A stretch of 64,000 bases of DNA from Punctularia strigosozonata HHB-11173 SS5 (Eukaryota > Basidiomycota > Agaricomycetes > Corticiales > Punctulariaceae). The notes beneath the pieces are model-generated. The model was not told where the DNA came from and did not search any database. It was given only the letters and a program-made list of their open reading frames with translations. Made by a program: the position numbers and the translations under genes. The DNA lies in the NCBI RefSeq assembly GCF_000264995.1, contig NW_006767435.1, positions 186,001 through 250,000 of the forward strand, given 5' to 3'. Below, in pieces: positions 32,512 to 57,740 of the stretch. The stretch's first letter is position 1; each line of letters opens with the position of its first letter.

Positions 32512-32936
32512 ATGTCTGTCTCTACGACGCAGAAGAGAGGGCAGAACATGCCTGGCTTGCATCTGTGCAATATTGCTCGTGAGGATTGGAGATAACCACT
32601 TCATGGACAGTACTCACACAGGGCACGAGATAACAGGCACCACAGTCGTGGTCGGAGTTGGTGTAGAGACCACAGCATCGGTGATAGCCTTACAGTTGGC
32701 TGGGCAAGCTTCATGAAGTTTGCATCTGCAGTATGTATCAGTACTAAAAATCGTGTTCAAGCAGAAGAACTACGTACGGCGCACATTGACGCTCTTCCAG
32801 ATACTCCAATGTTGGGGCTGATCTGGGGGTGCGGGTAATTCAAACCATGTAAGTACCCTCCGTGACAAAGTTTGAAAGTGCACACAAACCGGCCCAAGGA
32901 AGACACGAGGAGGATGAGGATGGCTGATCTCAACAT
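32512..32936 (-). CDS. Small secreted cysteine-rich protein D (modular CxxC family)
   Basis: Predicted secreted protein of about 83 residues, function unknown. Exons 32890-32936 (signal MLRSAILILLVSSLG), 32778-32822 (ending EERQCAP), 32618-32725 (CKLHEACPANC...SCPV) and 32512-32562 (CKPGMFCPLFCVVETD). All three introns are phase 2, and two fall just before the second Cys of a CxxC pair. The protein thus holds two copies of a CxxCxxxxxCPxxC motif. Arg-Gln immediately before the first Cys may mark propeptide removal. It is the closest paralogue of protein C (57262), sharing SCPVCKPGMxCPLFCVV. Convergent with the AA9 gene. TATA box at 32989. Confidence 0.8.
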
Positions 32937-32988
32937 TGAAGAAGCGCTTTCGGATGGTTCTCAAGGGAACAGTGCCCGACGGGGGCCC

Positions 32989-32995
32989 GTTTATA
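32989..32995 (-). promoter_or_regulatory. TATA box of secreted protein D
   Basis: TATAAAC on the minus strand, 53-59 bases before the start codon at 32936. Confidence 0.5.
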
Positions 32996-33095
32996 AGATA
33001 CCTTATTTGTATTCGTTTCAGCAATCATACTACGCACATCAGCGGTGAGATGGCATGCGAAAGTCGGTTTGACAATACGCAGCTATTTGTCGACT

Positions 33096-33440
33096 TCAGA
33101 CGTTCCGGTGTATGCGGGTTGTCTCATTGCGCTGAGACATCAGGCTAGACCGCGGGAAGAGGCTATGAATCGGAGCTGCTGCCGGGCGGGGAACCATTGA
33201 CCGATTGACCGACCTGGAGTACCCTCGCGAGTGGTTGTCGTTTCTCGCTTTGGGATAAGCGATCAAATGAGGGGAACGCCGAGACCTGGTTTCCGCCTGT
33301 TTTCTGGTCAAATATTAGTAACACATTTGACCTAGATACCTGGCTCGCAAACCGGAGAAATCTAAGAATAGCAAAACCATTGCTGCGAATGCGATCTGTG
33401 TGTCGATAATACACACGACAACTGCCGCAGTAATTTCGTA
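33096..33440 (-). CDS. Possible 3' exons of a membrane protein (remnant or unresolved gene)
   Basis: Two exons join in phase across an intron at 33304-33339. Exon 33340-33440 encodes one clear hydrophobic helix (AAVVVCIIDTQIAFAAMVLL), and exon 33096-33303 a basic cytosolic-looking tail ending in a stop at 33096. The acceptor before 33440 (TATTAG) is good, but upstream exons could not be joined without an in-frame stop. It may be a remnant or a gene whose 5' part I failed to resolve. Family not recognised. Confidence 0.3.
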
Positions 33441-34982
33441 CTAATAGATATCCGATGCCGGGTTTGGGTTTCCCTGGTAGAGTATAACATCGCATGCTAA
33501 CGTAAAGCAGCTCTTAAATTCGTGGAAGACTGTGCTTTGTCTGAACTCCTGAAAAACTGTTATCACTACCATACGGCAAGTCTTCATATGAAATGGTCTT
33601 TCCGGCTTTGACTTCCACCATGATACAACAGTTGTCGACGTTCAAACTGCCGGCTGTGCCTGAAAGTTAGGTGATTGGGTGCGACAAGCAGCGCGGTAGA
33701 CAATCATCGTCTGGAATCTAACACCTCAATGTGGAAGATGAGTGGATACTCGCCCAGAATATGGAAGCCTGAACCGCTTGCTCTGGCATGCATGCTCCGG
33801 CCGACAGCGCATGGAGCCTGAGCAGTTTGTTGAGCGTAAGAGTCAAACGCAAAACAGCTGTCATGAAATCCGATCGGGCCAACGACGACGTGAAATCAGC
33901 ACTACATTGTTCTGATTTAACACATGAGGTTTGAAGTGACGCACTGCTCTGATGGTGACTATTCTATGGCCTGCTATTAAACGGCCGGCTGTAAGGCCGA
34001 GTTATTGTGTAGTCGAAGTAACTGTTATGCCACTCTCGCGTTAAGCCTGATTTGAGAGAATAACAGGGACCTTGGTTTAGTCTGGTATAGTGAAGAGCAC
34101 GGGACACTGCGTTTCAGTTGTATATTGAACTTTTTTCAACTCATCAAACCACGGCCAATTTCGTCGCGTCACTGTCCAAGCCTCTGCACCGCCTTAGCAC
34201 ACACAATACTACTGGTAGCTTTAGTGGAGCTAACGCCGTCTATTACTAACCGGCCTCATGCTAAAGTATAGGCTCGATGGGTCGACAAAACTATGGGCAA
34301 ATCCGTCCTGCAACACAGCTGAGGGCATCTATCAGTTTATTGATTCATCGAGAAACGCGGTCAACGTACGGCGAGCACCCGCCTACTGTTGCTTTATAGG
34401 AAGAACAGTGGTCGTAGGAGGAAGAATGCAGCCTGGTATGCATTCGCCAGCCGGAGTTTGACACCTAAGATAGGTATGATAAGGCTTGTGATCAGGACAA
34501 GTTATTCCTGTCGAGAAATATCAATACCGCTGCTCACTCTGTGGGGCAAGACCCGGTGGGGGAAATTATCCCTGCATGCAACCTGTCGATAGCACTCGTA
34601 TTAGACGCGGACCAGTGGGTGCCTGTTCAACCATCCAACATACGATGTGACGAAGCTGGCTATGGCGACAAATACGGTGAATCGCTTCATTTTGCGCGCC
34701 GGAGAGGATCAGGTTCTGGTTTCAACTGGTGCGCTTTTTTGTGATTTATATCGGTACCACGAGTGAGCTAATTTTAAACTCCTCCGAGCAGTTTGCTATC
34801 TCGGTTGTCAACTACCGACATCTTTCTCGTGTCATCCAGATTGCAGAAGCCCTAAACGTGCCTGAGTGCGTCCCACATCAGTCTTCGGCGGCCCGGAAAT
34901 ATACAGGTCGCGGCATTGACGATCATCAACTCATTGACACCCGGCCGAGGGCGCTTCAGCGCCGAATTTCGGCCATGAGATA
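33441..34982. other. Gene-poor spacer before the transposon
   Basis: No gene supported. The stretch is A+T richer than its neighbours. Short exon-like pieces on the minus strand (33560-33900) have plausible splice ends but no consistent frame. Confidence 0.4.
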
Positions 34983-35008
34983 CTATCATTCCCACACTTG
35001 CTGGACAC
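34983..35008 (+). repeat. Left terminal inverted repeat of the pogo-type element
   Basis: Begins CTATCAT directly after TA and ends CTGGACAC; pairs with 37995-38020. Confidence 0.8.
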
Positions 35009-35400
35009 CCGGGGATTCTGGACACTCGAATCTTTTGCGTCCTCCCGTAGGATTCCTGAGCTCAAACTGGTGTAGATATGTTGTATCACACCTGATCTAC
35101 TGTGCCGCGTTGAGAGCACGGAAATCAGTTGGGGAAAAGTAGCACGGTGAGCCTGGCAAGTCCCAGAATCATGCTACGCCGCCGGTAATCACACTGTTCC
35201 TGCTTTTGTAACTATGCCTTGTACATATTACCTCTCAGAGTACATTGCTTGATGTATCAGTGAGTGCAGACTGCAATAAAATTGGAGGTTAGGGTGTTTC
35301 CGGGACAGAAAGCCGGGTCTCAAGACATGCGCGGGAGCAGACAGGACGTGCATTCCTTCATCGTGTTTCTCCCGCCGACTTCGGAGAACCCGTCGCTCTC

Positions 35401-37626
35401 ATGGGTTCCCAACCACAGCAGTCTCGTTCCCAGCCCCTGACGCCAAGAACACGTCTTCGTATTGCCGTCACCGAAGTACAACAAGGCATACGAGGTGTCC
35501 GTGCTGCATCCCGCCTGTACGACGTGCCTCGCAGCACCATCAGTGCACGCGCTCAAGGACTACACCAAGACCGCGTTACGGCCCATCAAGGCCAAATGAC
35601 GTTGACAGAAGCACAGGAGGAAGTGCTAGCTGACTGGTGTCAGTATCTCGCACTGACTGCGCATCCTCTCACACGCCGCACAATTGCACCCAAGGTCAAG
35701 GCCCTCTCTGGTCGCAACATTGGGAAAGATTGGGTGTACGCCTTTCTCCGACGTCACCCCGAGCTCACAACTTCGAAGACAGCTGGATTGGACCCCAGCC
35801 GGGCCCGCGCCTTCAATCACCTGAACGTCACCGACTACTTCATGAAACTCACCAAGATCATTGAAGAGTACGACATCCCCTGGGAGAACATCTGGAATAT
35901 GGACGAGAAGGGGTTTCAGATGGGCGGAGGGAGAAAGAACCGGGGAATAAAGTACATTGTATCCCGTCATGCGCGGGCTCGATATCGTCAGTCCAATGCC
36001 AACCTTGAGTTGGTCACAGTCATCGAGGCCATCTGTGCAAATGGACTGATGATGCCACCTGGAATAATATTCCAAGGCCGTCGTCTACGAAAGTCATGGT
36101 ATCCGCAGGATGGTACTGAGGTTTGGTATGTGATGTTATGCTGATCAGCCTATCACCAAGTCAATTGAAGCCATTACAGCATTAGTGTCTCGCCGAATGG
36201 ATGGACAGATGACCATCTTGGCCTTGAGTGGTTCAAGAAGGTCTTTGTCCCATTTGCGCAGGCCCATAATCCGTCAGGAAAGAAGATTCTTGTCATTTGG
36301 GATGGGCACGGCTCACATGAGACACATGCAATCTGCGAGTATGCATACCAGCACGGAATTCTGTTATTCTGTCTTCCTTCAAAGACAACGCACAAACTTC
36401 AGCCCTTGGATGTAGGTCTTTTTGGACCACTTCAGCGCGAATGGGCCAATACATGCGACGACATGGCCGCCGTTGGCATATCAGTCACGAAAGATAACTT
36501 CGTCGAGACCTACCTCCGAGTTCGCGGACACACACTCAAGCACGAGACTATTCTTGCAGCATTCAAGAAAACTGGTATCCGTCCTTTGGATCAATCAGTA
36601 TTTACAGTACAAGACTATGCCCCAAGCTGGGCAACATCCATCCGGCCACACTTCCCATCATCATATCCATATGTGCCGTCAGACGAAGGCGAAGACGAAG
36701 ATGTTGACGAAAACGAAGATTCCGATCTTGACGAAGACGAAGATGAGGACCTCAATGCAGCTCCCGACATCGGTGTCGATGAAGCGACCGGCATTGGTGT
36801 CGATGCAGCTCCCAGTGTCGGTGTCGATGAAGCGGCCGGTGTCGGTGTCGATGAAGCGGCCGGTGTCGGGGTCGATGAGGCGGCAGGCGTCGGGGTCGAT
36901 GAGGCGGCAGGCGATACTGACATGGATGGCTTGGGGGAGTCCGGAGCTTTGTTGCAAAGGCCGTCGCGAGTTGCAACGCGGTCTGTCACCCGTACGCGAA
37001 GTCTCTCAGCCTGGTCATCACGAGTAGACCTCTGGAAAGAGATTGAGCGGCTCCGAGAGGAACGAGACTCACAGCGAGTACGTGCGGAGAAAGCCGAATG
37101 CCATGCAATTTTGATGGGGCAGGAGAACTTGCAGCTTCGACGGCAATTGGAGGAACGGCGGACAAAGCGGGGGCGGAAGAGAGGCAGAGAGCTGAAGACA
37201 CAGGCACGCTGCCTGACGACCGAGGAGGCAATGCAGGCGATCCGAGCTGAAGAAGAAGAGCAGAGAGATCAGCATGAAGAATTGGAAAGGAGACGAGCTG
37301 AGCGGGAGGCAAACAAAGCAAGACGAGAGGAAGAGAAAAGACGGAAGAAAGAGGCGGCAATGCAACGGAAAACTCAGCAGGCCATCAATAGGATGGCCAG
37401 AGATGCTGAAAAACGACGAAAGGCCGAAGAACGGGCGATGAAGAAGGCGGAGAAGGCTTTGAAGAGCACATCCCGACGACAGGACAGGATGAAAAGGCTG
37501 AAGCGCCGACTGGAGGAAATGGATAAGGAGAACTCACCTAGTTTTGATTCTTCCATAGATCCGAGGCTGCGTAGTGGTAGCGACGAGCTTGGGGTAGCCA
37601 GAGCCCTCCTGGACTTGGGCAAGTAA
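35401..37626 (+). CDS. Pogo-type DDE transposase
   Basis: Transposase of 723 residues: exon 35401-36125, intron 36126-36179 (GT-AG), exon 36180-37626. N-terminal pipsqueak-type helix-turn-helix (RLRIAVTEVQQGIRGVRAAS), a second CENP-B-like DNA-binding domain (DWVYAFLRRHPELTT), then the DDE domain with Asp in WNMDEKGFQMG, Asp in LVIWDGHGSH and the last acidic residue in KLQPLDVGLFGPLQREW. The C-terminus is unusual: a long acidic stretch near residue 430, tandem copies of GVDEAAGV, and a highly charged Lys/Arg/Glu coiled-coil tail of about 200 residues. The reading frame is open throughout, so the protein could be active in cut-and-paste transposition in the nucleus. Confidence 0.88.
36764..36916 (+). 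repeat. Tandem coding repeat (GVDEAAGV) in the transposase
   Basis: About seven in-frame 24-base units encoding variants of GVDEAAGV. The later copies are nearly identical, so the array expanded recently. Confidence 0.75.
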
Positions 37627-37994
37627 ATTTCGGGGTAATGAGGGTTATGCTGCCTCAGGAACCCATGAATTCATCGCAAAGTCGGCAGGATAGCGTGTTG
37701 GGAATGTTGTAATGTTGATATTTTGCATACATATGGTATATCGCGTCGCAGTTGTCCGGTCGTCATCGCTGGTCGTCGAGGCGAAGGCGCGGGAGCCGTG
37801 GGAAACATGTCCAGCATCTGGCGAACTGTTGATTTCCTGACATGCTCTCGCGCTCCTCGTTTCATGAGACCAAGAGCTCGCATAACATCCAAATTTTTAT
37901 TGTATACTACAGACAAGACTCCGTGCTATCAGACAAAAAAAGAATGAAGGTGAACGGGTAGACGGAACGTGTGCAATCGTGCACTTAAGCTTAA

Positions 37995-38020
37995 GTGTCC
38001 AGGATCTATCGGCATGATAG
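37995..38020 (-). repeat. Right terminal inverted repeat of the pogo-type element
   Basis: Inverted match (20 of 26 positions) to 34983-35008, followed by TA at 38021. Confidence 0.8.
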
Positions 38021-38100
38021 TATGCCAGGAACCATGACATTCAAAACTCATGGGATTTCACGTATTGATGATACATTTGCGAAAGGTTTCGTAAGCGCGC

Positions 38101-38376
38101 TTAGCAAATTTCCGGGCATACATGCTTCGTACATCTGCGAGTGGCTGAATAGTCAAACACAGAGTATGCAGCGGTCGTGACGTACGTGAAATCGCACTGG
38201 CGGGGCTTTGGAGCACCGGCGTTCGCGAGGGGCGCCGCCGTGATCACAGGTTCAGGGACTGGGTTTGCTGCTACCCTACACACATAATTCTCTCAGCACA
38301 CACATTCGAAGCCGGAGAGGCGGACGCACGCAAGGACCAAAGCCGCCATGGCGATCAGACTCGTAAGCTTGGACAT
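38101..38376 (-). CDS. Small secreted cysteine-rich protein A (modular CxxC family)
   Basis: Predicted secreted protein of about 56 residues, the smallest member of the family. Signal exon MSKLTSLIAMAALVLA, linker exon rich in Ala/Pro/Val (PEPVITAAPLANAGAPKPRQ) ending CDFT, then a terminal exon CTKHVCPEIC with stop at 38101. Both introns are phase 2; the second lies just before the second Cys (acceptor ...CTCGCAG), as in all paralogues. It carries a single C-x3-C-x4-C-x3-C module. An Arg-Gln pair precedes the first Cys, as in protein D. Its 3' end is only 80 bases from the transposon end. Function unknown. Confidence 0.7.
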
Positions 38377-38448
38377 GTCGCTTGTTTGACAACTTCGACG
38401 GGCCGTGATGAAGGCGTGAGCGAGCGATGCCAACGCATACCACCGGAT

Positions 38449-38455
38449 CCTTATA
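38449..38455 (-). promoter_or_regulatory. TATA box of secreted protein A
   Basis: TATAAGG on the minus strand, about 75 bases before the start codon at 38376. Confidence 0.5.
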
Positions 38456-38865
38456 TGCTACGTACGACATCTGAGAATGAATGACTTCCGGCTCGCCGTA
38501 TGGAATAAACAATGATCGCGCAGTTCAGGCATGCATGCGCCATCAGGTCGCAGTGCGGTATCCCAGGAGAGCGTGAGCGGATCCATGCATGCCGGGCTTT
38601 GACTCTGAGATCCGCAGAAGATGCATCGCATTTTGTCGCAAGGGGTGAAAATGATAGTCGGCACGATTTGCATTGAGGCGCGGTTGCGCCCGGAAGCGGG
38701 AAGCGACTATGGAGAAGACGATAATAGGCACGGGCGCGGCGACTTTTGGCCGTGCGTTATTGTACCATCCTGTAGCAGGGCTCGTGGAGGTGTTACTCTA
38801 GCAACGCCGCTCACTCCTCATTCAACACTACGGGAAATGTGCGATACGGAGGCTCGTCACAATGC

Positions 38866-39304
38866 TCACAGCGCCACCGTACAATACTGGGGGCATATGC
38901 GAGCCGTACAGCTATAGATACACGGCGTGAGTCCGTGCGACTCCAATGGCATAACAAATGAGCACGTACTTGTTGCACGGTAGCTCGCGCTCGTCCAAGA
39001 TGACGGTCGCAGTGGGCGTGATGACCGGTGGTGCCGTTGTGGACGCGGTAGGGGGCAGAGTAATCGGACCGATAATGCAATAGTCGGGGCACACGAAGCC
39101 AGGTGTGCATCTGTGTGCTGATGGATGAGGCATACAACGCAAACAGCCTTGGAGTAGTCTTTACTTAGCGCAATCCCGCTTCTCAGGGTGAGCCAACGCG
39201 CTGAACATGGTGTGAGACATTCTCCGAGACATAACGGTGTACGGAACAAGGACGTACGCAATGACGAGGGCGGCGAGAGTGATCAAAGTCGTGAGCTTGA
39301 GCAT
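38866..39304 (-). CDS. Small secreted cysteine-rich protein B (modular CxxC family)
   Basis: Predicted secreted protein of about 77 residues. Signal exon MLKLTTLITLAALVIA; a phase-2 intron leads directly into a Cys module exon (CTPGFVCPDYCIIGPITLPP) that continues as a Thr/Pro-rich stretch to ELPCNN; a second phase-2 intron just before the next Cys leads to the terminal exon CTARICPQYCTVAL with stop at 38866. Compared with its paralogues it lacks the linker exon that carries the first Cys, so its first module is one Cys short. Acceptor choice was fixed by keeping the Cys-rich frame. Strong TATA box at 39372. Function unknown. Confidence 0.75.
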
Positions 39305-39371
39305 GTCGTGCAACGTTCCTGTGTAAGGCTGGAAAACGGCTTTGGCACAGTGGACGCCCACGTCCCGTATA

Positions 39372-39379
39372 TATTTATA
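39372..39379 (-). promoter_or_regulatory. TATA box of secreted protein B
   Basis: TATAAATA on the minus strand, 68-75 bases before the start codon at 39304. Confidence 0.55.
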
Positions 39380-39539
39380 CTCGCACGCGTTCGCTTGCAT
39401 GCTGTCGAGGATTTGGACTATTATTGGACAATAAGCGCGCAGTTCAGGCACCCCCCATCTAACACCAATGTGTCTCCGGCTTGGAGGACCTGTCCATCAG
39501 CCAGCGCGAAATGGACGCAATTGTCGAGATGACTCCGTA

Positions 39540-39860
39540 TCAAACCCACAGAACGCGCCCGTTCATGGCAGACTCTTCATCAGATACGGCGCGCAATCCT
39601 GTGTAGAGCGAAAGGACCGTGAGACGGTTCCGGGCCCTGGAAAGCACCTTCGTTAGACGCGTGGGAGGAAAAACTGCAGAGAAAGAACTGAGCATACGAT
39701 TTCTAGCCCGGCGCTCGGCCTCTTGAAAAAGCGATATTTCGAGCAAGTTCAGCTGAAGCTTGACGCGCCGCGAAAGGTTGGCGATCAGGGCACGCGGGAT
39801 GAAACAGATCTTATCATCCGCTTTTGATCCGTGCCCCTTGTTGGTTCCCTCGCTGTCCAC
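39540..39860 (-). CDS. Uncertain 106-codon open frame
   Basis: An open frame beginning MDSEGTNKGHGSKADDK lies between secreted proteins B and E. It has no signal peptide, no family resemblance and no Cys pattern. It is listed because the 600-base gap has no other candidate; it may be chance. Confidence 0.2.
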   Translation of the reverse strand: MDSEGTNKGHGSKADDKICFIPRALIANLSRRVKLQLNLLEISLFQEAERRARNRMLSSFSAVFPPTRLTKVLSRARNRLTVLSLYTGLRAVSDEESAMNGRVLWV

Positions 39861-40086
39861 GTTAGACTGAGAACCATGAGAACAGATCAGTCGTCCGGAG
39901 GTTTATCATCATTTATTAAAAGATCAAGCGAGCCCCTTGGTTCCAAAAATAGTACTTCGGGCCGCATCCAGAGTAAGTACTTGCTCGGGGAACGCGACAA
40001 ACAAGTCATGGTACTCGCTCGGGAGGAACGCTCGTTATAATCCAGCGTTACTGCCTGAATGTCCTAGCATACAGAGCGAGCGCCCG

Positions 40087-40461
40087 TCAAGCATTGGTGC
40101 TCGTCGCCGACGCCGAGCAGAGGAACGTGCACGTTGGGAAGATCGTCTTCGTGGTGCAGCTCGTCGAATGCGCGGCAGCGTCAACGGAGCATGATTCGGT
40201 CGTGGTGGGCGCGGTGTTACAGCTGAAGATGTCGAAGGCGTCGTCAGCAGAAGTGATGCTAAGGAAACGAGCAAAGGACCACAGCTTACGGGGGACATGT
40301 GACGGTTGGACTGGCGCTGGGCGCGGTGGTGAGGTCCGGAGCGTCCACAGCATAGGCGGTTCTGCGAAGGTCTAGTTGAGTCCAGCGCAGGGGAAGCGTA
40401 TGAGGATAATAGCGCACAGAACGGCCGTGCCAAGGAGGACAGTGTACAGAAGCTTGAACAT
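40087..40461 (-). CDS. Small secreted cysteine-rich protein E (modular CxxC family, divergent)
   Basis: Predicted secreted protein of about 83 residues. Signal exon MFKLLYTVLLGTAVL, a linker exon (AYAVDAPDLTTAPSASPTV) ending TCPP, then an exon starting with the second Cys (CNTAPTTTESCSVDAA...CTTKTIFPTCTFLCSAS) and stop at 40087. Both introns are phase 2, and the second lies between Pro and the second Cys of the CxxC pair, exactly as in the other four genes. Downstream Cys spacing differs, so it is the most diverged member. Thr/Ser-rich and probably O-glycosylated. TATA box at 40601 (about 140 bases upstream). Function unknown. Confidence 0.7.
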
Positions 40462-41212: not shown

Positions 41213-43759
41213 ATGGCCGTTGTAGGAGTCGACTTTGGTACTTTGCATAGCAAGGTACGTCGCGATGTCGAGGATACGAGCAAGATCGTAAAGCTGATTT
41301 ACATTTCATAGATCGGTGTCGCAAGACATCGTGGTATCGACATAATCACCAATGAAACCTCAAATCGCCAAACACCGTGCGTATAGCCGCGTCTTCAGGA
41401 CTGGGACGTAAACTGATCGCAACACCTACAGTTCGTTGGTTGCTTTTGGCCCCAAGCAGCGCGCCTTAGGCGAAGCCGCGAAGACGCAAGAGACGTCAAA
41501 CTTCAAAAACACCGTAGGCTCGCTCAAGCGCCTGATTGGCCGGACGTTGAACGACCCCGAAGTGCAAGAATACGAGAAGAAATTCTTGAATGCCAAGCTC
41601 GTCGATGTGAATGGCACGGTCGGTGTGCAGGTGCGTAATGCGTCCAGTCCATACCTCGTTCCGGGCTGACCTTGTTTCCTCCTAGGTCAACTATGTTGGC
41701 GAGCCGCACACGTTCTCAGCAACGCAACTCACCGCCATGTACCTCAATAAGCTCAAGGATATCGCGTCCGTGGAGCTCAAGACGGGCGTGTCCGACATCG
41801 TCATTGCCGTCCCCGGCTGGTTCACTGAGATCCAGCGCCGGGCGATGCTTGACGCGGCGGCGATCGCGGGCCTTAACTGCCTTCGGCTGATCAACGACTA
41901 CGCCGCCGTCGCGCTCGGGTACGGTATCACGAAGGCGGACCTGCCCGAGCCCGAGAATCCGCGGCACGTCGTGTTCGTAGACGTCGGCCACTCGTCGCTC
42001 TCCGCCTCCGTCGTCGCCTTCTCCAAGGGCCAACTCGTCGTTAAGGGCACCGGCTTCGACGCCCACCTCGGCGGGCGCGAGATCGACTACGCGCTCGTGC
42101 GCCACTTCTCGGAGGAGTTCAAGACCAAGTACAAGATCGACGTCATGTCGAATCCGAAGGCGACGTTCCGCCTTCAGGCCTCGTGCGAGAAACTGAAGAA
42201 GATCCTTTCCGCCAATTCGGAAGCGCCGCTCAACGTCGAGTCGATCATGAACGACATTGACGCCACCTCCAAGCTCACCCGGGAGGAGTACGAGGCGCTC
42301 ATCGGCGAGCTCCTCGACCGCATCCCGGCCCCGATCCAGGCCGCGCTCGACCAGGCCGGTCTCAAGCTCGACGACGTGCACTCGATCGAGCTCATCGGCG
42401 GCTCGACCCGCATCCCCGCCGTGCGCGCCAAGATCCAGAGCGTGTTCCCGGGAAAGACGCTCTCGACAACGCTCAACCAGGACGAGGCCGTCGCGCGCGG
42501 CGCCACGTTCTCGTGCGCGATGCTCTCCCCCGTCTTCCGCGTGCGCGACTTTGCGATCACCGACATCGCGAACTACTCCGTCAAGATCCAGTGGGAGAAG
42601 CAGCCCGGCGACCAGGACGAGGACACCGAGCTCACCGTCTTCGCGCGCGGGCAGACGATCCCGAGCACGAAGGTGCTCACCTTCTACCGTAGTGGACCGT
42701 TCGACCTTCAGGCCGTCTACGCCGAGCCCGCAACCCTACCTGGAGGCATCAACCCGTGGATCGGTCAGTTCACGGCGAAGAACCTTGGCCCTGAGCCACC
42801 CAAGGACTCTGTCCCGGTTAAGGTCCGCGTGCGCTTGGACAACGATGGCCTCGTCTCGTTCCAGAGCGCGTACCTTGAGGAGCGCACGGAGGTCGAGGAG
42901 ACGCCGATGGAGGTCGACGGCGAGGGCAACCAGCAGCCGCCGAAGAAGAAGACGAAGGTGACGAAGAAGGACATCCCCATCGTCTCCCAGAACTCGTCGC
43001 TGGACAAGAGTATCCTCGACAGCCTAAGGGAGCTCGAGGGTCAGATGCACGAAGCCGACAAGCTCGTCAAGGACACTGAGGTACGTGGCTTGTAGCAGCT
43101 TATCGGGAGATATCGTTACTCATGCTCGCATGCAGGATTGCAAGAACGCGCTCGAGGAGTACATCTATGACACCCGCAGCAAGCTCGACGACCGGTACGC
43201 CGCCTACGTGCAGCCGCAGGAGAAGGAGGCAATCCTCCCCGCCCTCACTGAGGCCGAGGACTGGCTGTACAGTGAGGAGGGTGAGGACGCGACCAAGTCG
43301 GTCTACGTCGAGCGCCTCAACAAGCTCAAGGCGCTCGGCGACCCCGTCGCGGCTCGCTATCGTGAGGCCGAGGCGCGCCCGTCCGCGATCAGCGCGCTCC
43401 GAGACACGATCAACACCTACATGAACCAAGCCTCGTCCGGCGATGAAAAGTTCTCGCACATCGAGGAGAAGCACAAGCAGACGGTGATCGAGAAGTGTGC
43501 GACGGTGCAGAAGTGGCTCGAGGACAACATCGTCCGCCAGTCGGAGAGGCCGAAGAACGTGAACCCCGTCCTGACAGCAGCAGAGATCTCGAAGAAGCGC
43601 GACGAGGTCATCAACGTCGCCATCCCCATTCTCACCAAGCCCAAGCCCAAGCCAAAGGTTGAGCCGACGACCGGTACCGAGACGCCCAAGCAGCCTGAAC
43701 CAGAGGCGAAGCAGGAGGCGCCCAAGAACGACGGCCCGTCGGAGATGGACATCGACTAA
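41213..43759 (+). CDS. SSE1: Hsp110-type chaperone (SSE1 family)
   Basis: Cytosolic Hsp70-like chaperone that acts as nucleotide-exchange factor for Hsp70. It starts at 41213 (MAVVGVDFGTLHSK); after the first intron (near 41255-41311) comes IGVARHRGIDIITNETSNR, then SLVAFGPKQRALGEAA. The ATPase domain shows FKNTVGSLKRLIGR, VIAVPGWFTEIQRRAMLDAA, LINDYAAVALGYG and IELIGGSTRIPAV. The long Hsp110-type acidic loop and C-terminal helical domain follow (EETPMEVDGEGNQQPPKKK; LEEYIYDTRSKLDDRYAAYV), ending SEMDID at 43759. GTLHSK instead of the Hsp70 GTTNSV separates it from canonical Hsp70. Five exons, GT-AG; the last intron is near 43081-43135. Strongly GC3-biased, as expected for a highly expressed gene. 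Complete. Confidence 0.95.
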
Positions 43760-44136
43760 GCTTCGGGTTGTCTCCACACACCTTACTCTCCTCTTGATGA
43801 CGTGACGTGGTTCGTGTTAGAGTAGATTCAGCTGTAGAAACACCCGATCTTCCTCTCGCTCTCAATGGACCGAGGAACAAACATACAACTTGTACAGCAT
43901 AATGCATATATTTTTGTTTGCTCAGCATGGTATCAAACACTGCCTCGTACATACAGGGTGCCGTTGTTACAGAACCAACAATTTGGGAGGAGGGACATGA
44001 AGGCACTTGTATAACCAAAAAATCCGATCACAAGATGGTTCTGTCGTACATTGATCGCAGGCAAGATCTGGGGCAATGATCAGTAAGACTTCCGATGCGA
44101 GGAGAGCGATGCTGGCCTACAGGTCAAGATTGTTGT

Positions 44137-49742: not shown

Positions 49743-50249
49743 GAGGATATTAGGAGATATAAGATGTGAGTGAAGTACGAGCAGAGAGCAGAGAACGAGA
49801 AGGGGGAAGGATGATGGTGGATGACTGAAACTGAGACTATGCGGGGGCCGTGGCGCGAGCAGCGGGGCCAAGGGCTGGTAAGCAGCACTGCCACGCGGAA
49901 GATGCCGAATGTGGCGGAGGTTTTCGGGTTCCCCGTTCGCTTCGTTCTCTTATTCGTGAGTAGTTTCATGCTATGTGGACGGGCGCGCAAAAGACAGAAC
50001 ACGGAGATAGCTTGGTGACTTGGACTAGAAGATGACTTGCGACCCGCGATGCGGCGCTGCTGGCGCTGTGCCTGTGCTGTACGAAGCGGTGCCTTGCGTC
50101 TCGCCGCCGTCATCTTCTGCCACCCGTACTGCTCGTTAACTATATTATTGTCACACAGGGCTACCGTGCGGTCCGTGGTACAAGGATCTGACTCATTCTG
50201 AAGTGAACGACAAGTGCGCTCTCATCCTGAATAAAGCCTGCTAGGTTCC
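49743..50249. other. Intergenic region
   Basis: Promoter of the membrane protein and the upstream flank of the decayed F-box copy; nothing else seen. Confidence 0.45.
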
Positions 50250-51601
50250 TTGCGATTCATATCGGCACCCCAGCCTGTAGGGTCGTCGTCGATCAGGGTC
50301 GCACCGTCATTGACCCCAGAAATCTTGCTGATGGTGCTCGAGCATCTGGTTTTTAATATGTCGCCGTCGTTCACCGCTGTGAACCGGATGCACGGCTACA
50401 ACGGTTGGCCAATCTTTCGATATCGGGGCGGCCGCGGGCGTTCGGTGAAGTGTGTAGGCTATGTGCCGCACTCGCGTAGCCCTTTCTCTTTCGCCATGCA
50501 GTCCTGCGCAAGCGCAGGCATGTGCTGTCATTTTGGGTGCTCTCGATGGCTCGAAGACGAGGGGAGAGGCTCTCAGGGACGCGGTTTGCAGGATCACCAT
50601 CTCCGTTGGACCAGACGAGGAAGATGCACATGTCACACGGCGTCCTTCAAGTTTCGATGACCTGCTACCTAGCGGCGGAACTCTGGATCGACCTCCCAGT
50701 ACAAATGACCTCGTGAGCGTGCTCCGCGCGTGCCCTGCCCGAGGGCTGCGTACATCTCTGCGTGAACTCCGTGAGAGGGCAGTTACGTGGAGGCACACCT
50801 GGACACGCTCGGTCTCAACGAACGAGCATTGAAAGCTCTAACGCCCCCCCTCTGTCACTTGCCTTTCGGTCTCTACGAGCTCCCACAAATCCGACCTCAC
50901 ACCATGGCAACTCTTTTCCCTCTTTGCGCCTACTATCAGGATCCTCACGCTCACCGGAGCCTGCCAAATACGTGAATACCACGGTCCTGCACTCACTCGT
51001 CCGCCTTAGCGAGTTCATCTGGATGAAATAGCGAGCGGGAGGCTAGAGCTCCATCCCCTACATCCTCTCCAACTCGATCGGCCACCTTCGCTCGATCGAA
51101 ATGGGAGGAACGGACATTCGACACGCTGACGTCCTCCAACAGCATCGCATGCACCTCGAGTCGGATGCAATCCGTATCGCTCCCGCAACAGGCGCGGCCA
51201 TCCTATGGCCGGCTGAAGGAGCTCATTCTGGACACGTCTGATGACTGACAAAGCGGCGCTCATTGCTCGCCCTGTCGGAGACGGTGTAGCACCTCCCGAT
51301 GCGCATCTCGGACGACCTGGAGCTGTGGCGCGCGGTCATGCAGCGCCTCCCGAACCTGCCCGTGGTCACCGTCGGGCGGACAGGCGATGTGCGAGTGCTC
51401 CAGGCTGAGGGCGCGGCGCGGGATACCGAAGTCCGGACTGTATTTCGGGTCAGTCATCTCGCACTCGTGGTGACTGGGACGCACACCTGATGTCGTGTTA
51501 CGCAGCCCTACGACGGCGTTGAGTCCGATACGCTTCCCCGAGTACTTCGGGCAGCGAAGCACAAAGCTGGCGTTCAAAAGCATATTCGCGATTGCAAGCA
51601 T
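50250..51601 (+). pseudogene. Decayed F-box gene, inverted duplicate of 59074-60444
   Basis: The start region is still readable (SAPQPVGSSS; TPEILLMVLEHL, the F-box core; NRMHGYNGWPIF) and aligns with the intact gene on the other strand at 59074-60444 (SAPQPASSSS; APEILLMVLEHL; NRMHGYTGWPVF). Downstream homology continues but jumps between the three frames: DEEDAHVTRRPSSFDDLL, HLDTLGLNERALKAL, FIWMK followed at once by a stop (tag at 51029), RISDDLELWRAVMQRLPNLP and ESDTLPRV. Several frameshifts and stops therefore break the host gene. It is probably a duplicated copy that lost constraint. Confidence 0.85.
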
Positions 51602-52032
51602 GCTAGAGTCGCTGCTTGTACGAGCGATGTTGTCACCGTAGCCTTCGGCCGCGATGAAAAGGGCTGTAAGTGCATCGAAGTCTATTCATTTTATCTTCGC
51701 ATTAAAGTACTCGAAATTTAACCTGTACGCAAGACAAAGTAGCAAATACAACTGATAATATGCGGTAGTAAAAAATTGCGCCTACATATGTAGTCAGTGT
51801 GACCGTGGGTACTTCGCTTCTACGGGGTGAAGAGCGCGCTGTGGCAAGCTCCTGCTTTTGCCTCTTGTTCCGCTATTGGGACGAAATATACCTACCTACC
51901 TACCTCTGTTATTCTTGTTCTTCTATCCATAACGCCGCAATAATCCACTACAAGCCCACCTGTCATACGCCTTCGCGCAGGAACCGCGACGAGATCTACG
52001 TCCCCAACACTGATTGTTAGAAAGCTGCTGTC
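51602..52032. other. Upstream region of API5
   Basis: No exon; it contains GGTA-repeat copy 2 at 51866-51904. Confidence 0.5.
51866..51904 (-). repeat. GGTA tetranucleotide repeat plus conserved flank, copy 2
   Basis: On the minus strand: four GGTA units, TATATTTC, then GTCCCAATAGCGGAACA. It matches copy 1 (3393-3438) except for a 7-base gap. It lies about 130 bases before the API5 start. Confidence 0.7.
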
Positions 52033-54402
52033 ATGGCTCAAGAGCAGGAACGCGAGCTTCGGACGCAGTTGAAGAACGCTGAACGGCTATCAGGGAACTC
52101 AACCGCAGTGCGTTGTTGGCTGAATGACTTCTCTTGATACTGTATGAACTAATCGAGGCTTTGTACAGCGCAAAGAAGCACTCACGCAGTTGATCCAGCT
52201 CGTACACTCCTCGCATGTGAACATCAAGAGCCTCGTCGCCGAGAACATACCGAAGTACATCAAGTACTTCCCAGACTTAGAGGACGACGCAATCAACGCG
52301 GTTTATGACTTGTGCGAGGACCCAGATCAGCAGGTGTGGGACGCCCCCGTTGTTATCTCGCGGGCACGTCTGCTCACTGGCGGGTTGTGAATGCAGATAC
52401 GGCTGAAGGGGTACCAGGCCATTCTCGCGGTCTCGCAAGAAGACAGGAAGTGGGTACGAAGAAACGCGGACGTCCTGGTCCAGCTGCTGCAGAGTGGTGC
52501 GTAGTTCGCCGCCAAGCGAGCTCTCTTTACTCCGGTATGCGCGGTTGCTCAGCCCGGTACGGCGTTGTTGTTGGTTGTTCCCTTCTCCCCCTTTTTTCCT
52601 TCCCAAAGATGATGCCCAAGAGGTCAAGTTCGTGGGCAGGAAGCTGGCGGAGCACCTCGACATCGACCCACGCGCGACGTTCGGCGTGTTCCTCGACCAA
52701 ATCGTGCCTCCGGACGAGTCCAGGGAGCCGGACGAACAGGTCATCCGGGACAACCTGAGAAGGCTCGTGATTGCGTATATGCGCGACGAGGTCAAGCGGG
52801 GGTCGATCGTCCGGCATTGCCAGCAGAATGGAGATGTGGACAACGCGGTGGTGAATGGGATGCTGCGGGTGCGCCGTTTTTTGCGCTATCTTTTCGATGT
52901 TGCAAAGGCTGAAACTTATTGCTGGCCAGGCTGTCGCAAAACTTGACGTGAAGGAGGCGGATATCATCGTGAAGGACATCCTTCTGGTTCTGCCTTCATA
53001 CAGGACAAACCCCGCTCGTGGAGTGGAGCTCCTCCAGACGCTATGCGATCGCGCTCGAGCTGCGCTCAAAGAGGATCTGCAGGAGAGCCGACAAGGCGCC
53101 AAGCGGCTCGACGCAACATCTGCGTGGCTCGCCCTTGCTACACATGTCGTCACTGAGAAAAAAATTGGCACCCCGATACCCTTGTTAGGGTTCTACCTGA
53201 CGTCAATCCTGCGAGGCGACGTTCTGTTGTCGCTGGCTCCAGAGGAGCAGGTCGCGATCTTGTCGGGCTTTGCCTCGCTGCTCTCTGCATGTAGTGAGAT
53301 TGTGCAACAAGGGCCATCTACGAGGTTCGCGGAAGTGGAGCTGCCTGGTATACAGCGACAGACGGTCGGAGCAGGTCCCGTCGTTCTCGAGGCGAGTGGA
53401 GTGTTCTATGCGGGGTTTAGCTCGCTTATCTTGCACTTAGGCGTTCGCGAGCACCGGAATGAAGGATATTCGGTGCTGGACTGCATCAAAAACGTTTCTA
53501 GACCTCTTCAAAGAAGTGCGCTCTATCTTCCCTCCAATGATTCCCCTTCACTGATTCGTCGTGTAGCGAAAGGAGAAGATCACCACTCCCCAATTCATTG
53601 AATGCCTCAAGAAACTACAGACGGTTACGAACAGATCTAGCCTAGATACAGTAGATGCGACTCTCGCAAACGAGGTCAAGGAACTCATCAAGGTTAGCGG
53701 ACATGCGCTCCTTCCCTCTCGGCCTGGTCGGCGTCTGATGTCCTCCGCTCGTCTTTGCAGACGCTCTTGCCGCACGAACCGCCGCCAGAGCAGCGCACTC
53801 GGCGCATGCAAGTCTCCCAGAAGGCGGCGCGCGCCAACGGGGCCAAGGAAGGGCCCGCAGGCGGGAAGGCGAACGGGAAGTCAACGCCCGAACCTGGTCA
53901 GCTCGCCGTAGACAAGATCCAGAACGCGCTGCGGACCACCGCCGGCGCCGGTGCGAAGCGGAAGCGCGAGGACGGGCAGGCGACGGCGTCGCTGGTGGAT
54001 CGGATACAGCCCAGCTCGGGGAGGGCGACCCCTATCGCCGAACGGGTGCTCGGCGCCGCCACCCCGTCGACGAACGGCGGGGGACAGCGTAGCCGGGGCA
54101 AGGACGGCCCGGCGTCGCTTCTTGAACGACTGTCTACGTCCGGTCCCACACCGTCTCGGACGAAGAACGAGCCCTCGAGGCCGGCATTCGCGACGCAGCT
54201 TCCGGCGCGGCAGGCGGCGCAACGAGCGAGCGAGGACGCGCCGCTGTCGATCAAAGGCGCTGCGAAGCGCGAGAGTCAGCCTCAGAGACCAACGTCGGGC
54301 CCAGGTGGAGGGTTGGCTCAACGTCTCGCGGGATCGTTGGCGGACCGGGTGGGTGGTGCGTTGTCGGAGTCTGGCGCTGCGCATAAGCGGAGGAGGAAGT
54401 GA
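52033..54402 (+). CDS. API5: API5/AAC-11 family nuclear protein
   Basis: Helical-repeat (HEAT/ARM-like) nuclear protein of the apoptosis-inhibitor-5 family. It starts at 52033 (MAQEQERELRTQLKNAERL). Splicing gives the family core: KEALTQLIQLVHSSHVNIKS, LVAENIPKYIKYFPDLEDDA, AVYDLCEDPDQQ, IRLKGYQAILAVSQEDRKW, ADVLVQLLQSDDAQEVKFV, DPRATFGVFLDQIV, NLRRLVIAYMRDEVKRGS, further helical repeats, and ITTPQFIECLKKLQT. The C-terminal 190 residues are low complexity with nuclear-localisation-type clusters (AKRKREDG; HKRRRK at the end). About seven introns, GT-AG (for example 52111-52168, 52498-52609, 53693-53760). Complete. An apoptosis role is known only for animal members; the fungal role is unknown. 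Confidence 0.85.
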
Positions 54403-54582
54403 CACTCCCGTCGCCGGCTGTGCCGGTGTTCCTCGTCCTTGGGATGATCGTGCTTCTACGTTACCCTCTCCTCTTTCATCAGCATGCTGCATATATTCGC
54501 TTGATTGGGATGGGTGCGCTCCACGGCTGTAAAATTCGCGTCGGTGATACCTTGAGCGTAGCAACAGTGCAGCTTGACGGCA

Positions 54583-54606
54583 GGTAGGTAGGTAGGCAGG
54601 TTACCC
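54583..54606 (+). repeat. GGTA tetranucleotide repeat, copy 4
   Basis: Three GGTA units then GGCAGGTTACCC, resembling the flank of copy 3 (GGATTACTC). It lies about 90 bases before the DAD4 start and in inverted orientation to copy 2 on the other side of API5. Confidence 0.5.
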
Positions 54607-54695
54607 ACGCTGCGTGTGCAGTCCAAGTCGCTTCAAGCCGTGACCGGTGTTTCATCTCAAACTTCATCTGGCGCCGGAGCTGTCGCAAGCATACT

Positions 54696-55039
54696 ATGGA
54701 AAATCCGCACAACGAGCGTCAGGCTGTGTTGCTCGAAAGAATCGTGAAGAACAGTGTACTTACTATATTCAAATATCGGTCTGGAGAAGGCTCACGTTCG
54801 TACGGCAGAACAAGGCCACGGAACTCTTCATGGAGCTCAACAGAGCACTCGAAGTACGCTGCCATCCCCCCACGGCTTTAATTGAAACATATCGTCTCAT
54901 ATCGCGACCCTCCATGTAGGAGATCCATCGCGCGAACGCGTCGATCCGCACAGCGGCGGATCTGGTGACGAAGTACAGACAGAACGTCAAGTTCAACTTC
55001 GAGGTCCAAGCTCCGTCCGAGTCGAAAGCCGATGCCTAG
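54696..55039 (+). CDS. DAD4: DASH/Dam1 complex subunit Dad4
   Basis: Small kinetochore protein, part of the DASH/Dam1 ring that couples kinetochores to microtubules in fungi. Three short exons, 54696-54755, 54809-54853 and 54920-55039, all GT-AG, give a 74-residue protein (yeast Dad4 has 72). The N-terminus MENPHNERQAVLLERIVKN matches the family start MENPHE.., followed by ELFMELNRALEEIHRANASI and DLVTKYRQNVKFNFE, typical of Dad4 (..NYHNSVQFNLE). Short polar tail QAPSESKADA. No exon is long enough to show as an open frame. Same direction as API5. Confidence 0.88.
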
Positions 55040-55498
55040 AGCGTGCCCAGATATACGACCTGGCGTCCCATGCCTGCTCGTGTTAGCTATCGCGACTCTA
55101 AGGAGCGGGACGAATGCCGTCGCTTACAAACGATGGTCTCCGCAAATAGACCCCCGTCCATCGTTACAGCCTTTAAACTACCTGCAACATCCGAGAGATG
55201 ACGACATGCTTAAGTCACCTCCTCAAGGTTTCGCCTTGTAGATCCTCTCACTCGAGATGGAAGATTCGTCGGCGGATCGCTACTATATCAACATCTTAAA
55301 CGACATCTGCCCGTCTTCTCTTCTGCTTGGGGTTATCTCGGCTGTCTGTAACCTTCCTTATGTTTCTCCGGGATATGCGCCCGTGCAAATACGTATACGT
55401 AGGGAGCCACCACCGTGCATCCATCCTGGATACCTGGGGCCACGGTTTCCGCAACCGCGTAGAGATAAAAGTCGGACGAGTTAGAAACGTGTGACGTC
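55040..55498. other. Intergenic region
   Basis: No exon supported on either strand. Confidence 0.45.
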
Positions 55499-56980
55499 AT
55501 GATATCATGGCTTTCCTCTTGCTACCCGGCATCGCTCAAGCAACCGGACAGACTGCGGCTGGCTTGGGTCGGTGACACCCTCTGCCGTTACTTGACACTC
55601 GAACTGAAAGTACTTGCACAGCTGTTGCTATCGACAATGCACGCAAGGCCGAACAAACGTCTATCTCCTTCAGCATCGGGAACAAGGTGTTCACAACCGC
55701 GAAGACCAAACCGTTTCCTTTCCATGAGCTCCCGTACGTGGATCTGTCAAGGGACTCCTTTCCCGCAAAATTCTCATTATATGCATTCAGCTACGAGCTG
55801 CGAGAGGAGATCATCATCTTAGCACTCGAACGATCGAAAACGTTACTCCAGGCATTCGAGATCTCCCCCACCATCCTCCCCGTTCCCGGCGTATGGCCCG
55901 CACGCGACCATCCCTTTCGTGACCCGGAACACCCACTCTACCACCACCCCATGAACCCCTACCACGACCGCAACCTGCCCCGCCCCCGCGAAGTGAACGG
56001 CTACCCGCTCTCGTCTTGGCGCTGGCAGCTCATCTGCCGCGAATGGCGCGCCATCATCAGGCCCCGGCTCTGGCACACCGTCACGCTCGTCGAACGGCCG
56101 GCCTACGACGGGTTTTTGAAGCTGCTCAAGGACCCGGATATACCCGGCTACGTGCGCGACATCGAGATGAAGGAAGGCTTTGATATGGACATGTTCAAGG
56201 TGTACACGATCATGACCAGTCTGCCGCACGCGGAGCGGATCGCGTACTCGCCCCGCCCCGTCGCGGCATATCGGCAGCCGTTCGGGGTACGTTTGGCGCT
56301 CCCCTCCTCACCTATCATCGCGATCCGACGTTTCCACGCAGATAAACCTCGTCCCGTCCAACCCGGGCCCGACGTCGCTCACCATCGGCGTCCCCTTCGA
56401 CGAGGTCACGAACGATACCACGCGCAAGCACCTCCATAACCTGACCCGGCTCACGAACCTCAACATCCACGTCCTCCACCTCACGCCTGCCATGGCCGTC
56501 TTCCTCCGCTCGCTCACCCAGGTTCGCTCGCTGACGCTGACCGTCTACGCCTTCTCGTTCCATGCGCTCGAGGCATTCACCTTCGCAAACATGCCGCCCT
56601 CCTCCCACACCATATCGTCAAATGGGGACGGGGAGGGACAGGAACACGGACAGGGGCTAAAGGAGCTCGTGATCTTCGCGCTGCGTATCATGGAGGGCCA
56701 GGCGGATGCCATACGCGAGTTCATCGCGCGCGACCCACATCTGAGCCGCATGTGCACGATGTACGCAGGGCGTGCGAAGGACGCCAAGCTGATCTATTCC
56801 CCGGAGATCGCGAGGGCGGAGGAGGCGGCTGTTGCCGGACCGAGCGAGAAGGAACAGGGGGAAGGAGCGAAAGCTACGAAGGACGGAGAGAGCAAGAACG
56901 ACCAGGAGCATTGGGAAAGGACGACGAAGGTGAAGTTCCTTGGGGGATTGGTGGAGCTGACGATGGAGAGCCGCAAGTGA
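55499..56980 (+). CDS. F-box-like protein
   Basis: Predicted substrate-recognition protein of an SCF ubiquitin ligase, by resemblance only. Exons 55499-55571, 55622-56286 and 56341-56980. Splicing at 55572-55621 joins MISWLSSCYPASLKQP... in frame to AVAIDNARKAEQTSISF; the N-terminal start is therefore tentative. Features: FSYELREEIIILALERSKTL, then SSWRWQLICREWRAIIRPRL, the typical F-box ending with the conserved Trp, followed by WHTVTLVERPAYDGFLKLL and leucine-rich stretches (LTRLTNLNIHVLHLTPAMAV; VRSLTLTVYAFSFHALEAF). A charged tail rich in Glu/Lys ends VKFLGGLVELTMESRK. It is not closely related to the F-box pair at 50250 and 59074. Confidence 0.65.
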
Positions 56981-57261
56981 GGGAAACGCTGAACACAGAC
57001 GAGCGACGAATAAACACAAACGACGGAACCATCGATCAATAGGACATGGTACATTACACGCGGTACTGGTTAATGGTTTGTATCATAAGTAACAAGGAAT
57101 ATATGTATCGAGGCTAGTGGTACGCGATGCGATCCCCAGCTCAAAATCACGCTGCCGTGGCTTCGAGTGCGATAGCGGTACAGAACAGGGGGCAAATGCG
57201 GGAGTGGCAACTGTAGATCACATTCAGAACATGGACCAGGTGCATGTAAAAGGGAGAAGCC
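56981..57261. other. Short intergenic region
   Basis: Convergent 3' ends of the F-box-like gene and secreted protein C; nothing seen. Confidence 0.5.
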
Positions 57262-57740
57262 TCACTCGTTGCATGGATGAGTCGTAGGCGTAGGCGTCGG
57301 GGTTACCGTAACGACGACGCAGAACAAAGGGCAGACCATTCCTGGCTTGCAGCTGTTTGTAGAAGACAATCATCAGCCGAGAAGCCTGCACCGATGCCAC
57401 TATTACACCTACACAGGGCACGAGATAGAGGTGACAGGAGTCGACGTAGTCGTAGTAGGCAGGATGATCGGACCACCTGGGTTGACTACGCATCCGTCAA
57501 GGCAGACATCATCTGGTCCGCAACTGAAGTCAGATCAGTTGGCGATTGAGCTTTGGAAAAAGTTCGACCATGCACGTACGGAATGCAGTCATCTTGGCGT
57601 TCGAGCAGAGGGCTCGGAGCAGCCAATGTCCTGGCAGAGGCAAGGTCAGCCGCCGCAAGTCTGACTAAGGACAGCGCAGATTCTCATACGCACATGCCGA
57701 GGACAGAAGCAAGTAAGGCGACGGTGGTGAATTTGAGCAT
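57262..57740 (-). CDS. Small secreted cysteine-rich protein C (modular CxxC family)
   Basis: Predicted secreted protein of about 109 residues, the longest member. Signal exon MLKFTTVALLASVLGI, linker exon (RTLAAPSPLLERQDDCIP), module exon (CGPDDVCLDGCVVNPGG...SCPV) and terminal exon (CKPGMVCPLFCVVVTV...HPCNE) with stop at 57262. Every intron is phase 2, and two fall directly before the second Cys of a CxxC pair. It is nearly identical to protein D in the terminal module (SCPVCKPGMxCPLFCVV) although the genes are 25 kb apart. Glu-Arg-Gln before the first Cys may be a propeptide boundary. TATA box at 57810. Function unknown. Confidence 0.8.

What the first reader, a model, noticed from the sequence alone, without database searches (positions are those of the whole stretch)
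32512..57740. Family of small secreted Cys-rich proteins built from symmetric phase-2 exons
Five genes (32512-32936, 38101-38376, 38866-39304, 40087-40461, 57262-57740) encode signal peptides followed by C-x2/3-C-x4/5-C-x3-C units. In each gene an intron in phase 2 falls exactly before the second Cys of the first CxxC (or CxxxC) pair; where the unit is repeated (C and D), the intron is repeated too. All other introns are also phase 2. Each Cys unit is thus a symmetric 2-2 exon that can be duplicated or lost without shifting frame, and copy number does vary: A and E one, B about one and a half, C and D two. I know of no description of this family.
Basis: partly seen in the sequence, partly recalled or inferred. 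Interest (0 to 1): 0.8.

Follow-up and report, generated by a model that had tools for sequence, protein, structure and literature searches.

The report
Modular cysteine-rich secreted fungal proteins
A fungus carries a cluster of five small genes for apparently secreted proteins, four of them built from one to three copies of a tiny four-cysteine unit that an intron cuts at the same place every time, so units can be gained or lost without breaking the reading frame; their function is unknown.

Summary
The finding is real once its counts are corrected. Five minus-strand genes (A 32936-32502, B 38376-38101, C 39304-38866, D 40461-40087, E 57740-57147) have 14 predicted introns, all phase 2. D is divergent: one CPP|C intron, other spacing, no BLASTP match to C.

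A scan of 259.8 kb for C-x2/3 | phase-2 intron | C-x4/5-C-x3-C gives 8 hits, all in A, B, C and E; phases 0 and 1, and 40 Markov controls, give none. The symmetric exon carries three Cys of one unit, a linker, and the first Cys of the next; all 9 internal exons are multiples of three. C aligns with E around E's middle unit; A lacks E's last unit; B has one unit.

No Pfam or PDB relative was found. Homologues elsewhere and transcripts could not be tested. Best reading: a tandem family of secreted, probably Kex2-cleaved, disulfide-stapled modular peptides. Function is inferred only.

The parts
32502..32936 (-). Gene A, 4 exons, 86 aa: signal peptide, ...LEER|QCAPC, units CAP|CKLHEACPANC and CPV|CKPGMFCPLFC; no third unit (stop in what would be the linker)
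38101..38376 (-). Gene B, 3 exons, 56 aa: signal peptide, ...PKPR|Q, one unit CDFT|CTKHVCPEIC, then stop directly after the last Cys
38866..39304 (-). Gene C, 4 exons, 89 aa: signal peptide, ...EKR|D, units CAK|CTPGFVCPDYC and CNN|CTARICPQYC; linker carries LDER
40087..40461 (-). Gene D, 3 exons, 83 aa: divergent; signal-peptide intron and CPP|C intron both phase 2, six Cys with other spacing
   Evidence: not found by the unit detector
57147..57740 (-). Gene E, 5 exons, 119 aa: signal peptide, ...LLER|Q, units CIP|CGPDDVCLDGC, CPV|CKPGMVCPLFC and CND|CHSRICPLFC
57147..57210 (-).
57413..57523 (-). E exon 3, symmetric 2-2 exon (111 nt): last three Cys of unit 1, linker, first Cys of unit 2
57266..57352 (-). 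E exon 4, symmetric 2-2 exon (87 nt): last three Cys of unit 2, linker, first Cys of unit 3; in the alignment with C the middle unit falls against gaps and linker
38970..39110 (-). C exon 3, symmetric 2-2 exon (141 nt)
32618..32725 (-). A exon 3, symmetric 2-2 exon (108 nt)

Best explanation
A small, fast-diverging tandem family of fungal secreted proteins made of repeated four-Cys micro-units (C-x2/3-C-x4/5-C-x3-C) joined by Thr/Pro-rich linkers. Inferred steps: the signal peptide is removed; a Kex2-type protease cuts at a basic residue just before the first unit (ERQ, PRQ, EKR), in A, B and E leaving an N-terminal Gln that can cyclise; each unit closes with two disulfides, giving one, two or three stapled beads on a probably O-glycosylated string. 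Because every internal exon is flanked by phase-2 introns and each unit intron cuts a unit after its first Cys, any upstream half-unit can join any downstream half-unit in frame, so units are gained, lost or mixed without frame damage. What the beads bind is unknown. My most likely role is an extracellular interaction or signalling peptide of a wood-decay fungus; their slight net negative charge argues against a classical membrane-lytic peptide. Confidence: anatomy about 0.9, in-frame unit gain and loss about 0.75, Kex2 and disulfide maturation about 0.6, interaction or signalling role about 0.3.
For: Gene models and 14 of 14 phase-2 introns; 9 of 9 internal exons are multiples of three. 12 of 14 introns cannot be read through in frame; 11 of 14 have a CTNAY branch-like motif 10-50 nt before the acceptor (no control made). 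Detector 8 hits versus 0 in 40 controls. Non-Cys positions of the 8 units are more alike than in any of 2000 permutations, also without the near-identical A2 (alignment placed by hand, one residue of B's CDFT left out). A/E unit 2: 4 of 6 nucleotide changes synonymous by Nei-Gojobori counting, dN 0.05, dS 0.43, 18 codons. A/E exons 3 and 4 exceed all 200 base shuffles. E versus A BLASTP 4e-14; E versus C 3e-10, with E's middle unit against gaps and linker. Exon 1 of B and C 33 of 47 bases identical, 0 of 2000 codon shuffles as high. The x4-spaced unit is last in all three genes that have it (B, C, E); the five x5-spaced units stand before it or, in A, alone.
Against: No cDNA or proteomics. Function has no direct evidence. 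D fits by place, strand and intron phase; its sequence does not match C by BLASTP, and its exon 1 is only weakly like that of B or C (22 of 44 bases, reached by 7 and 11 of 2000 base shuffles, no codon shuffle made). Only 7 of 28 unit pairs reach 0.2% or less in the pairwise test; A1 matches no other unit beyond Cys and E1 only C1, weakly (0.03). B's unit is like C2 but not clearly like E3 (unit DNA 12 of 31, reached by 166 of 2000 codon shuffles; protein 0.12). Exon 1 of A versus B, A versus C and B versus E does not stand out against codon shuffles (97, 406 and 104 of 2000). A/E exons 1 and 2 and introns do not exceed shuffles in the gapped test. Two introns (B 2, C 1) could be retained in frame. 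D has no basic cleavage site before its first Cys. Genome-wide protein searches found no other members, though their first look is insensitive to exons this short. Gain versus loss of the middle unit cannot be ordered without an outgroup.
Confidence: 0.6

Rival explanations
1. Secreted disulfide-stabilised defence peptides: the units antagonise competing bacteria or fungi, as defensin-like peptides do in other fungi.
For: Small, probably secreted, Cys-rich, with a likely processing site next to the first Cys, tandem and divergent, in a likely wood-decay fungus. Fungal defensin-like peptides occur in Agaricus with negative net charge, and some precursors hold two defensin domains (PMC4165938, passages seen).
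Against: Four Cys per unit, no C-x-C, no Pfam match; products are not cationic (K+R 1-3 against D+E 2-7).
Confidence: 0.25
2. Metal-binding secreted proteins: the four Cys of a unit hold a copper or zinc ion instead of forming disulfides.
For: CxxC and CPxxC pairs resemble metal-site spacing (my judgement). In NCBIfam the only line up to E 1 was a match of A to NuoI, a ferredoxin-type protein (E 0.47).
Against: Probably secreted through an oxidising pathway; that match is noise (10 bits against a cut-off of 135).
Confidence: 0.08
3. Structural wall or matrix proteins, cross-linked and glycosylated through the Thr/Pro linkers.
For: T+P+S make up 20-52% of the predicted mature forms.
Against: B has no linker, only one bare unit; no GPI-type C-terminus seen by eye (no predictor run).
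Confidence: 0.12
4. Chance: unrelated small ORFs with cysteines spliced by eye.
For: Exons are short, the models are manual, and the detector was written after seeing them.
Against: 8 hits against 0 in 40 controls; only phase 2; conserved non-Cys positions; mostly synonymous A/E changes in unit 2.
Confidence: 0.02

Closest known systems
Fungal small secreted cysteine-rich proteins (SSPs), e.g. the effector-like Ssp1 of the white-rot Pleurotus ostreatus
   Same: Small, apparently secreted, unannotated, in a probable white-rot fungus; Ssp1 is discussed as a regulator of the ligninolytic system and development (PMC7105643, abstract and passages)
   Different: No four-Cys unit or unit-splitting intron was seen in the passages I read; sequence relation to Ssp1 was not tested
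Kex2-processed repeat proteins (KEPs) of Agaricomycetes
   Same: Secreted precursors cut by a Kex2-type protease; many of the detected peptides start with pyroglutamate (PMC9769878, start of abstract and passages)
   Different: KEPs have multiple cores flanked by Kex2 sites; here a basic site precedes only the first unit, apart from LDER in the linker of C. 'Cysteine' and 'disulfide' have 0 occurrences in that paper's main text
Fungal defensin-like peptides (micasin, abisins, maglosins)
   Same: Small secreted Cys-stabilised peptides, duplicated genes, some two-domain precursors, some phase-2 introns (PMC4165938, passages)
   Different: Those have a CS-alpha-beta fold and introns of mixed phase; here four Cys per unit and no C-x-C
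Animal extracellular proteins built by symmetric-exon shuffling (recalled)
   Same: Module number changes through exons flanked by introns of the same phase
   Different: Those are mostly class 1-1 with the intron between modules (recalled); here class 2-2 with the intron inside each unit

Membership tests
Fungal small secreted cysteine-rich proteins | Short protein with hydrophobic N-terminal signal and raised Cys content | tested here: met
   56-119 aa, 4-12 Cys in the predicted mature forms; signal peptide judged by eye, no predictor run
KEX2-processed repeat proteins | Several cores flanked by basic cleavage sites | tested here: not met
   One basic site before the first unit in A, B, C and E; none that looks like one between units except LDER in C; none in D (read by eye from the proteins)
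Fungal defensin-like peptides (CS-alpha-beta) | Six or more Cys with C-x3-C ... C-x-C (recalled) | tested here: not met
   Four Cys per unit, no C-x-C; no Pfam match
Hydrophobins | Eight Cys with two CC pairs (recalled); Pfam PF01185 | tested here: not met
   No CC in any of the five proteins; no Pfam match, while 29 matches, exon by exon, exist elsewhere in the genome
CFEM domain proteins | Pfam CFEM profile | tested here: not met
   No Pfam match up to E 10 (filters drop most weak matches)
Family with solved structure | Sequence match in PDB | tested here: inconclusive
   Only E in its two-unit model was searched whole (0 matches up to E 1), plus a profile of the 8 units (1 noise match, E 8.4); A, B, C and D were not searched whole
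This family in other fungi | Homologues with the same intron phases | not testable with these tools
   No collection of fungal genomes held; the own genome has no relatives here

The most novel reading that the evidence does not exclude
The locus is a cassette system: interchangeable half-unit exons of class 2-2, with the intron inside each four-Cys unit, let the fungus change number and mixture of stapled beads by exon gain, loss or skipping, so one gene can make products with one, two or three beads by alternative splicing alone, including hybrid units.
Probability: 0.25. Interest if true: 0.6.

Novelty: new variant of a known kind. Interest (0 to 1): 0.42.

Why it matters
Fungal secretomes hold many small Cys-rich proteins without known domains, and how such proteins arise is an open question. 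Here the gene anatomy suggests a route: symmetric exons whose junction lies inside a tiny disulfide unit, so that number and mixture of units can change in one step. It gives a simple detector that can be run on any fungal genome, and B offers a predicted 15-residue natural product small enough for synthesis and structure work.

Tried and rejected
D as an ordinary two-unit member: rejected, spacing and BLASTP against C do not fit. A weak D match on contig C12 (E 0.0045): read and rejected; the other strand encodes a leucyl-tRNA synthetase stretch. A still weaker one on C13 (E 0.65) was not read. Detection of within-gene exon duplication: A/E introns and exons 1 and 2 do not exceed shuffles in the gapped test; by position C2 goes with E3 and B1, but E3 and B1 are not clearly alike, so grouping by position is only partly borne out. 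dN/dS of unit 1: synonymous sites saturated. Contig start as a telomere: no TTAGGG or CCCTAA in the first 500 bases. Papers on Lignosus and rust fungi: no such unit in the passages seen. KEP survey PMC6339444: 12 of 28 passages seen, no such unit. The paper search was spoiled by the term 'ctaric' (galactaric acid) and repeated with that term replaced (0 papers). Structure prediction was not tried, because the spliced proteins are not read letter for letter from the window as the tool requires. (a short pattern counted in L049) was of no use; one search failed on a term too short and was not repeated.
Full report
What was checked. The five genes were modelled by hand from the minus strand. Protein A: signal, LEER|QCAPCKLHEACPANC, linker, CPVCKPGMFCPLFC, short tail. 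B: signal, PKPR|QCDFTCTKHVCPEIC and stop. C: signal, EKR|DCAKCTPGFVCPDYC, linker, CNNCTARICPQYC. E: signal, LLER|QDDCIPCGPDDVCLDGC, linker, CPVCKPGMVCPLFC, linker, CNDCHSRICPLFC, tail. D: signal, no basic site before the first Cys, CPPC, then Cys at other spacings. All 14 introns are phase 2, are 51-67 nt long, and start with GT and end with AG. Twelve of 14 cannot be read through in frame; B intron 2 and C intron 1 could. The unit notation is C-x2-C (x3 in B), then x5 in A1, A2, C1, E1, E2 and x4 in B1, C2, E3, then C-x3-C.

Is it more than chance? A detector asking for C-x2/3, a donor, an intron of 41-130 nt, an acceptor, and C-x4/5-C-x3-C without stops was run on both strands of 259.8 kb of contig C3. 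With the intron in phase 2 there were 8 hits, all in A, B, C and E. With phase 0 or phase 1 there were none. Forty second-order Markov copies of the stretch gave none in any phase. The detector was written after seeing the genes, so the null is for this pattern and not for any pattern. Dropping the donor requirement gives the same 8 and nothing else, against 0-3 per control, 10 in 10 controls. D is not found by this detector.

Coding evidence independent of cysteines. With Cys left out, the summed BLOSUM62 score of all 28 unit pairs is 138 against a permutation mean of -285 and a maximum of -135 in 2000; without A2 it is 65 against a maximum of -82 (units were aligned by hand, with one residue of B's CDFT dropped). 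Part of the conserved signal is Pro after the third Cys (7 of 8 units) and Val, Ile, Phe or Ala before it (8 of 8). Individual pairs differ: 7 of 28 (A2/E2, A2/C1, C1/E2, C1/C2, C2/E3, E2/E3, A2/E3) reach 0.2% or less; A1 stands out with none, E1 weakly with C1 (3%). Between A and E, unit 2 shows six nucleotide differences, four synonymous by Nei-Gojobori counting (dN 0.05, dS 0.43, 18 codons); unit 1 is saturated. These are small numbers. A/E exons 3 and 4 exceed all of 200 base shuffles; exons 1 and 2 and the three introns do not.

How the genes are related. BLASTP gives E versus A 4e-14 and E versus C 3e-10 over nearly the whole length; these E-values are for single comparisons and include the signal peptide. 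In the E/C alignment the start, unit 1 with its linker (GPIILP / GPITLP) and the last unit pair up, and E's middle unit falls against gaps and linker. B and C share 33 of 47 bases in exon 1 (0 of 2000 codon shuffles) and resemble each other in the last unit (18 of 31 bases, reached by 2 of 2000 shuffles); C2 and E3 share 20 of 31 (0 of 2000), but B1 and E3 only 12 of 31 (166 of 2000). BLASTP of B versus C reports only the unit (E 0.006) and a chance-level line. Exon 1 of A and E shares 26 of 47 bases (1 of 2000 codon shuffles), of C and E 25 (11 of 2000); A/B, A/C and B/E do not stand out. So, in E's numbering, E has units 1-2-3, A has 1-2, C has 1 (or a 1/2 hybrid, since its unit is closer to E2 than to E1) and 3, and B has a unit like C's last. 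This is what gain or loss of symmetric exons would leave behind. Which direction it went cannot be said without an outgroup. D versus C is not significant by BLASTP (E 8.9); its exon 1 is weakly like that of B and C (22 of 44 bases, 7 and 11 of 2000 base shuffles). D rests mainly on place, strand and intron phase.

A correction that changes the picture. The intron lies inside each unit, after its first Cys. The exon between two unit introns therefore holds three Cys of one unit, the linker, and the first Cys of the next. Four such exons exist (108, 141, 111 and 87 nt), and the five second exons (45, 90, 36, 72, 51) are symmetric too: 9 of 9. Any upstream half can meet any downstream half in frame and still form a unit. 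Skipping E exon 3, for instance, would join CIP to CKPGMVCPLFC (from the sequence; no transcript evidence). Phase 2 in 14 of 14 is not 14 independent events; for scale, one study of 64 introns in a transferred basidiomycete gene found phases not significantly different from 1:1:1 (PMC3584928, passage).

Where it occurs. Seven protein queries over the 33.6 Mb genome found members only at this locus. Outside it there were two weak matches, both to D: the one I read (C12) is antisense to a leucyl-tRNA synthetase stretch, the other (C13, E 0.65) was not read. The tool scores only a few candidates and reads exon by exon, so distant members with 11-residue exons could be missed. Direct scanning covered 259.8 kb of contig C3, under 1% of the genome. 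The genome has 11 matches to the class II peroxidase extension and 29 exon-wise matches to hydrophobins, which fits a white-rot agaricomycete (my inference; the species was not identified). Homologues in other fungi could not be looked for.

Mechanism. Shown by sequence: the anatomy above. Inferred: signal cleavage, Kex2-type cleavage at ERQ, PRQ or EKR, cyclised N-terminal Gln in A, B and E (seen for many agaricomycete KEP peptides, PMC9769878, passages), two disulfides per unit, O-glycosylated linkers. The predicted mature forms are slightly acidic. B would be a single 15-residue unit. I hold an extracellular interaction or signalling role as most likely at about 0.3, with microbial antagonism as the main rival.

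Comparison with the known. No Pfam match up to E 10 for the five proteins (the filters drop most weak matches), one noise line in NCBIfam, a library of bacterial and archaeal families, no PDB match for E's two-unit model and one noise line for the unit profile. Six short unit strings occur in 0 papers of the held library (main texts only, and strings broken in alignments would be missed). Searches for conserved or symmetric introns and for secreted Cys-rich or Kex2-processed proteins in fungi showed no description of this design in the listings I saw: 25 of 143 papers, 1 of 1, 15 of 20, 12 of 315, 10 of 25, 6 of 6, 4 of 4, 4 of 4. This does not show that the family is absent from databases of predicted fungal proteins.

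Verdict. A real, undescribed (within the searches named) and probably secreted family with an unusual unit-splitting symmetric intron; of moderate interest because function and distribution are untested.

Noticed in passing
window 35401-37626 (+): A Tc5/pogo-like transposase gene (HTH_psq and HTH_Tnp_Tc5 by Pfam in 35401-36144) lies between gene A and genes B-D; its second ORF (no Pfam match) holds a short VGVDEAA-type tandem repeat near 36800-36915.
   Followed up: partly
window 18459-20867 and 23184-25700 (-): Two large ORFs (802 and 838 aa) that look alike by eye; the second has a TPR_10 match, the first no Pfam match. They look like TPR/CHAT-type proteins (my reading).
   Followed up: no
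window 41737-43095 (+): HSP70-family ORF (PF00012, 2.5e-108), near gene D.
   Followed up: no
window 32502-32562 (-): Gene A stops where E has a linker leading to its third unit; no third-unit remnant was seen by eye downstream in the three minus-strand frames printed to 32150.
   Followed up: partly
window 38970-39110 (-): The linker of C contains LDER directly before ELPCNNC, a possible second Kex2-type site that would free the last unit on its own.
   Followed up: no
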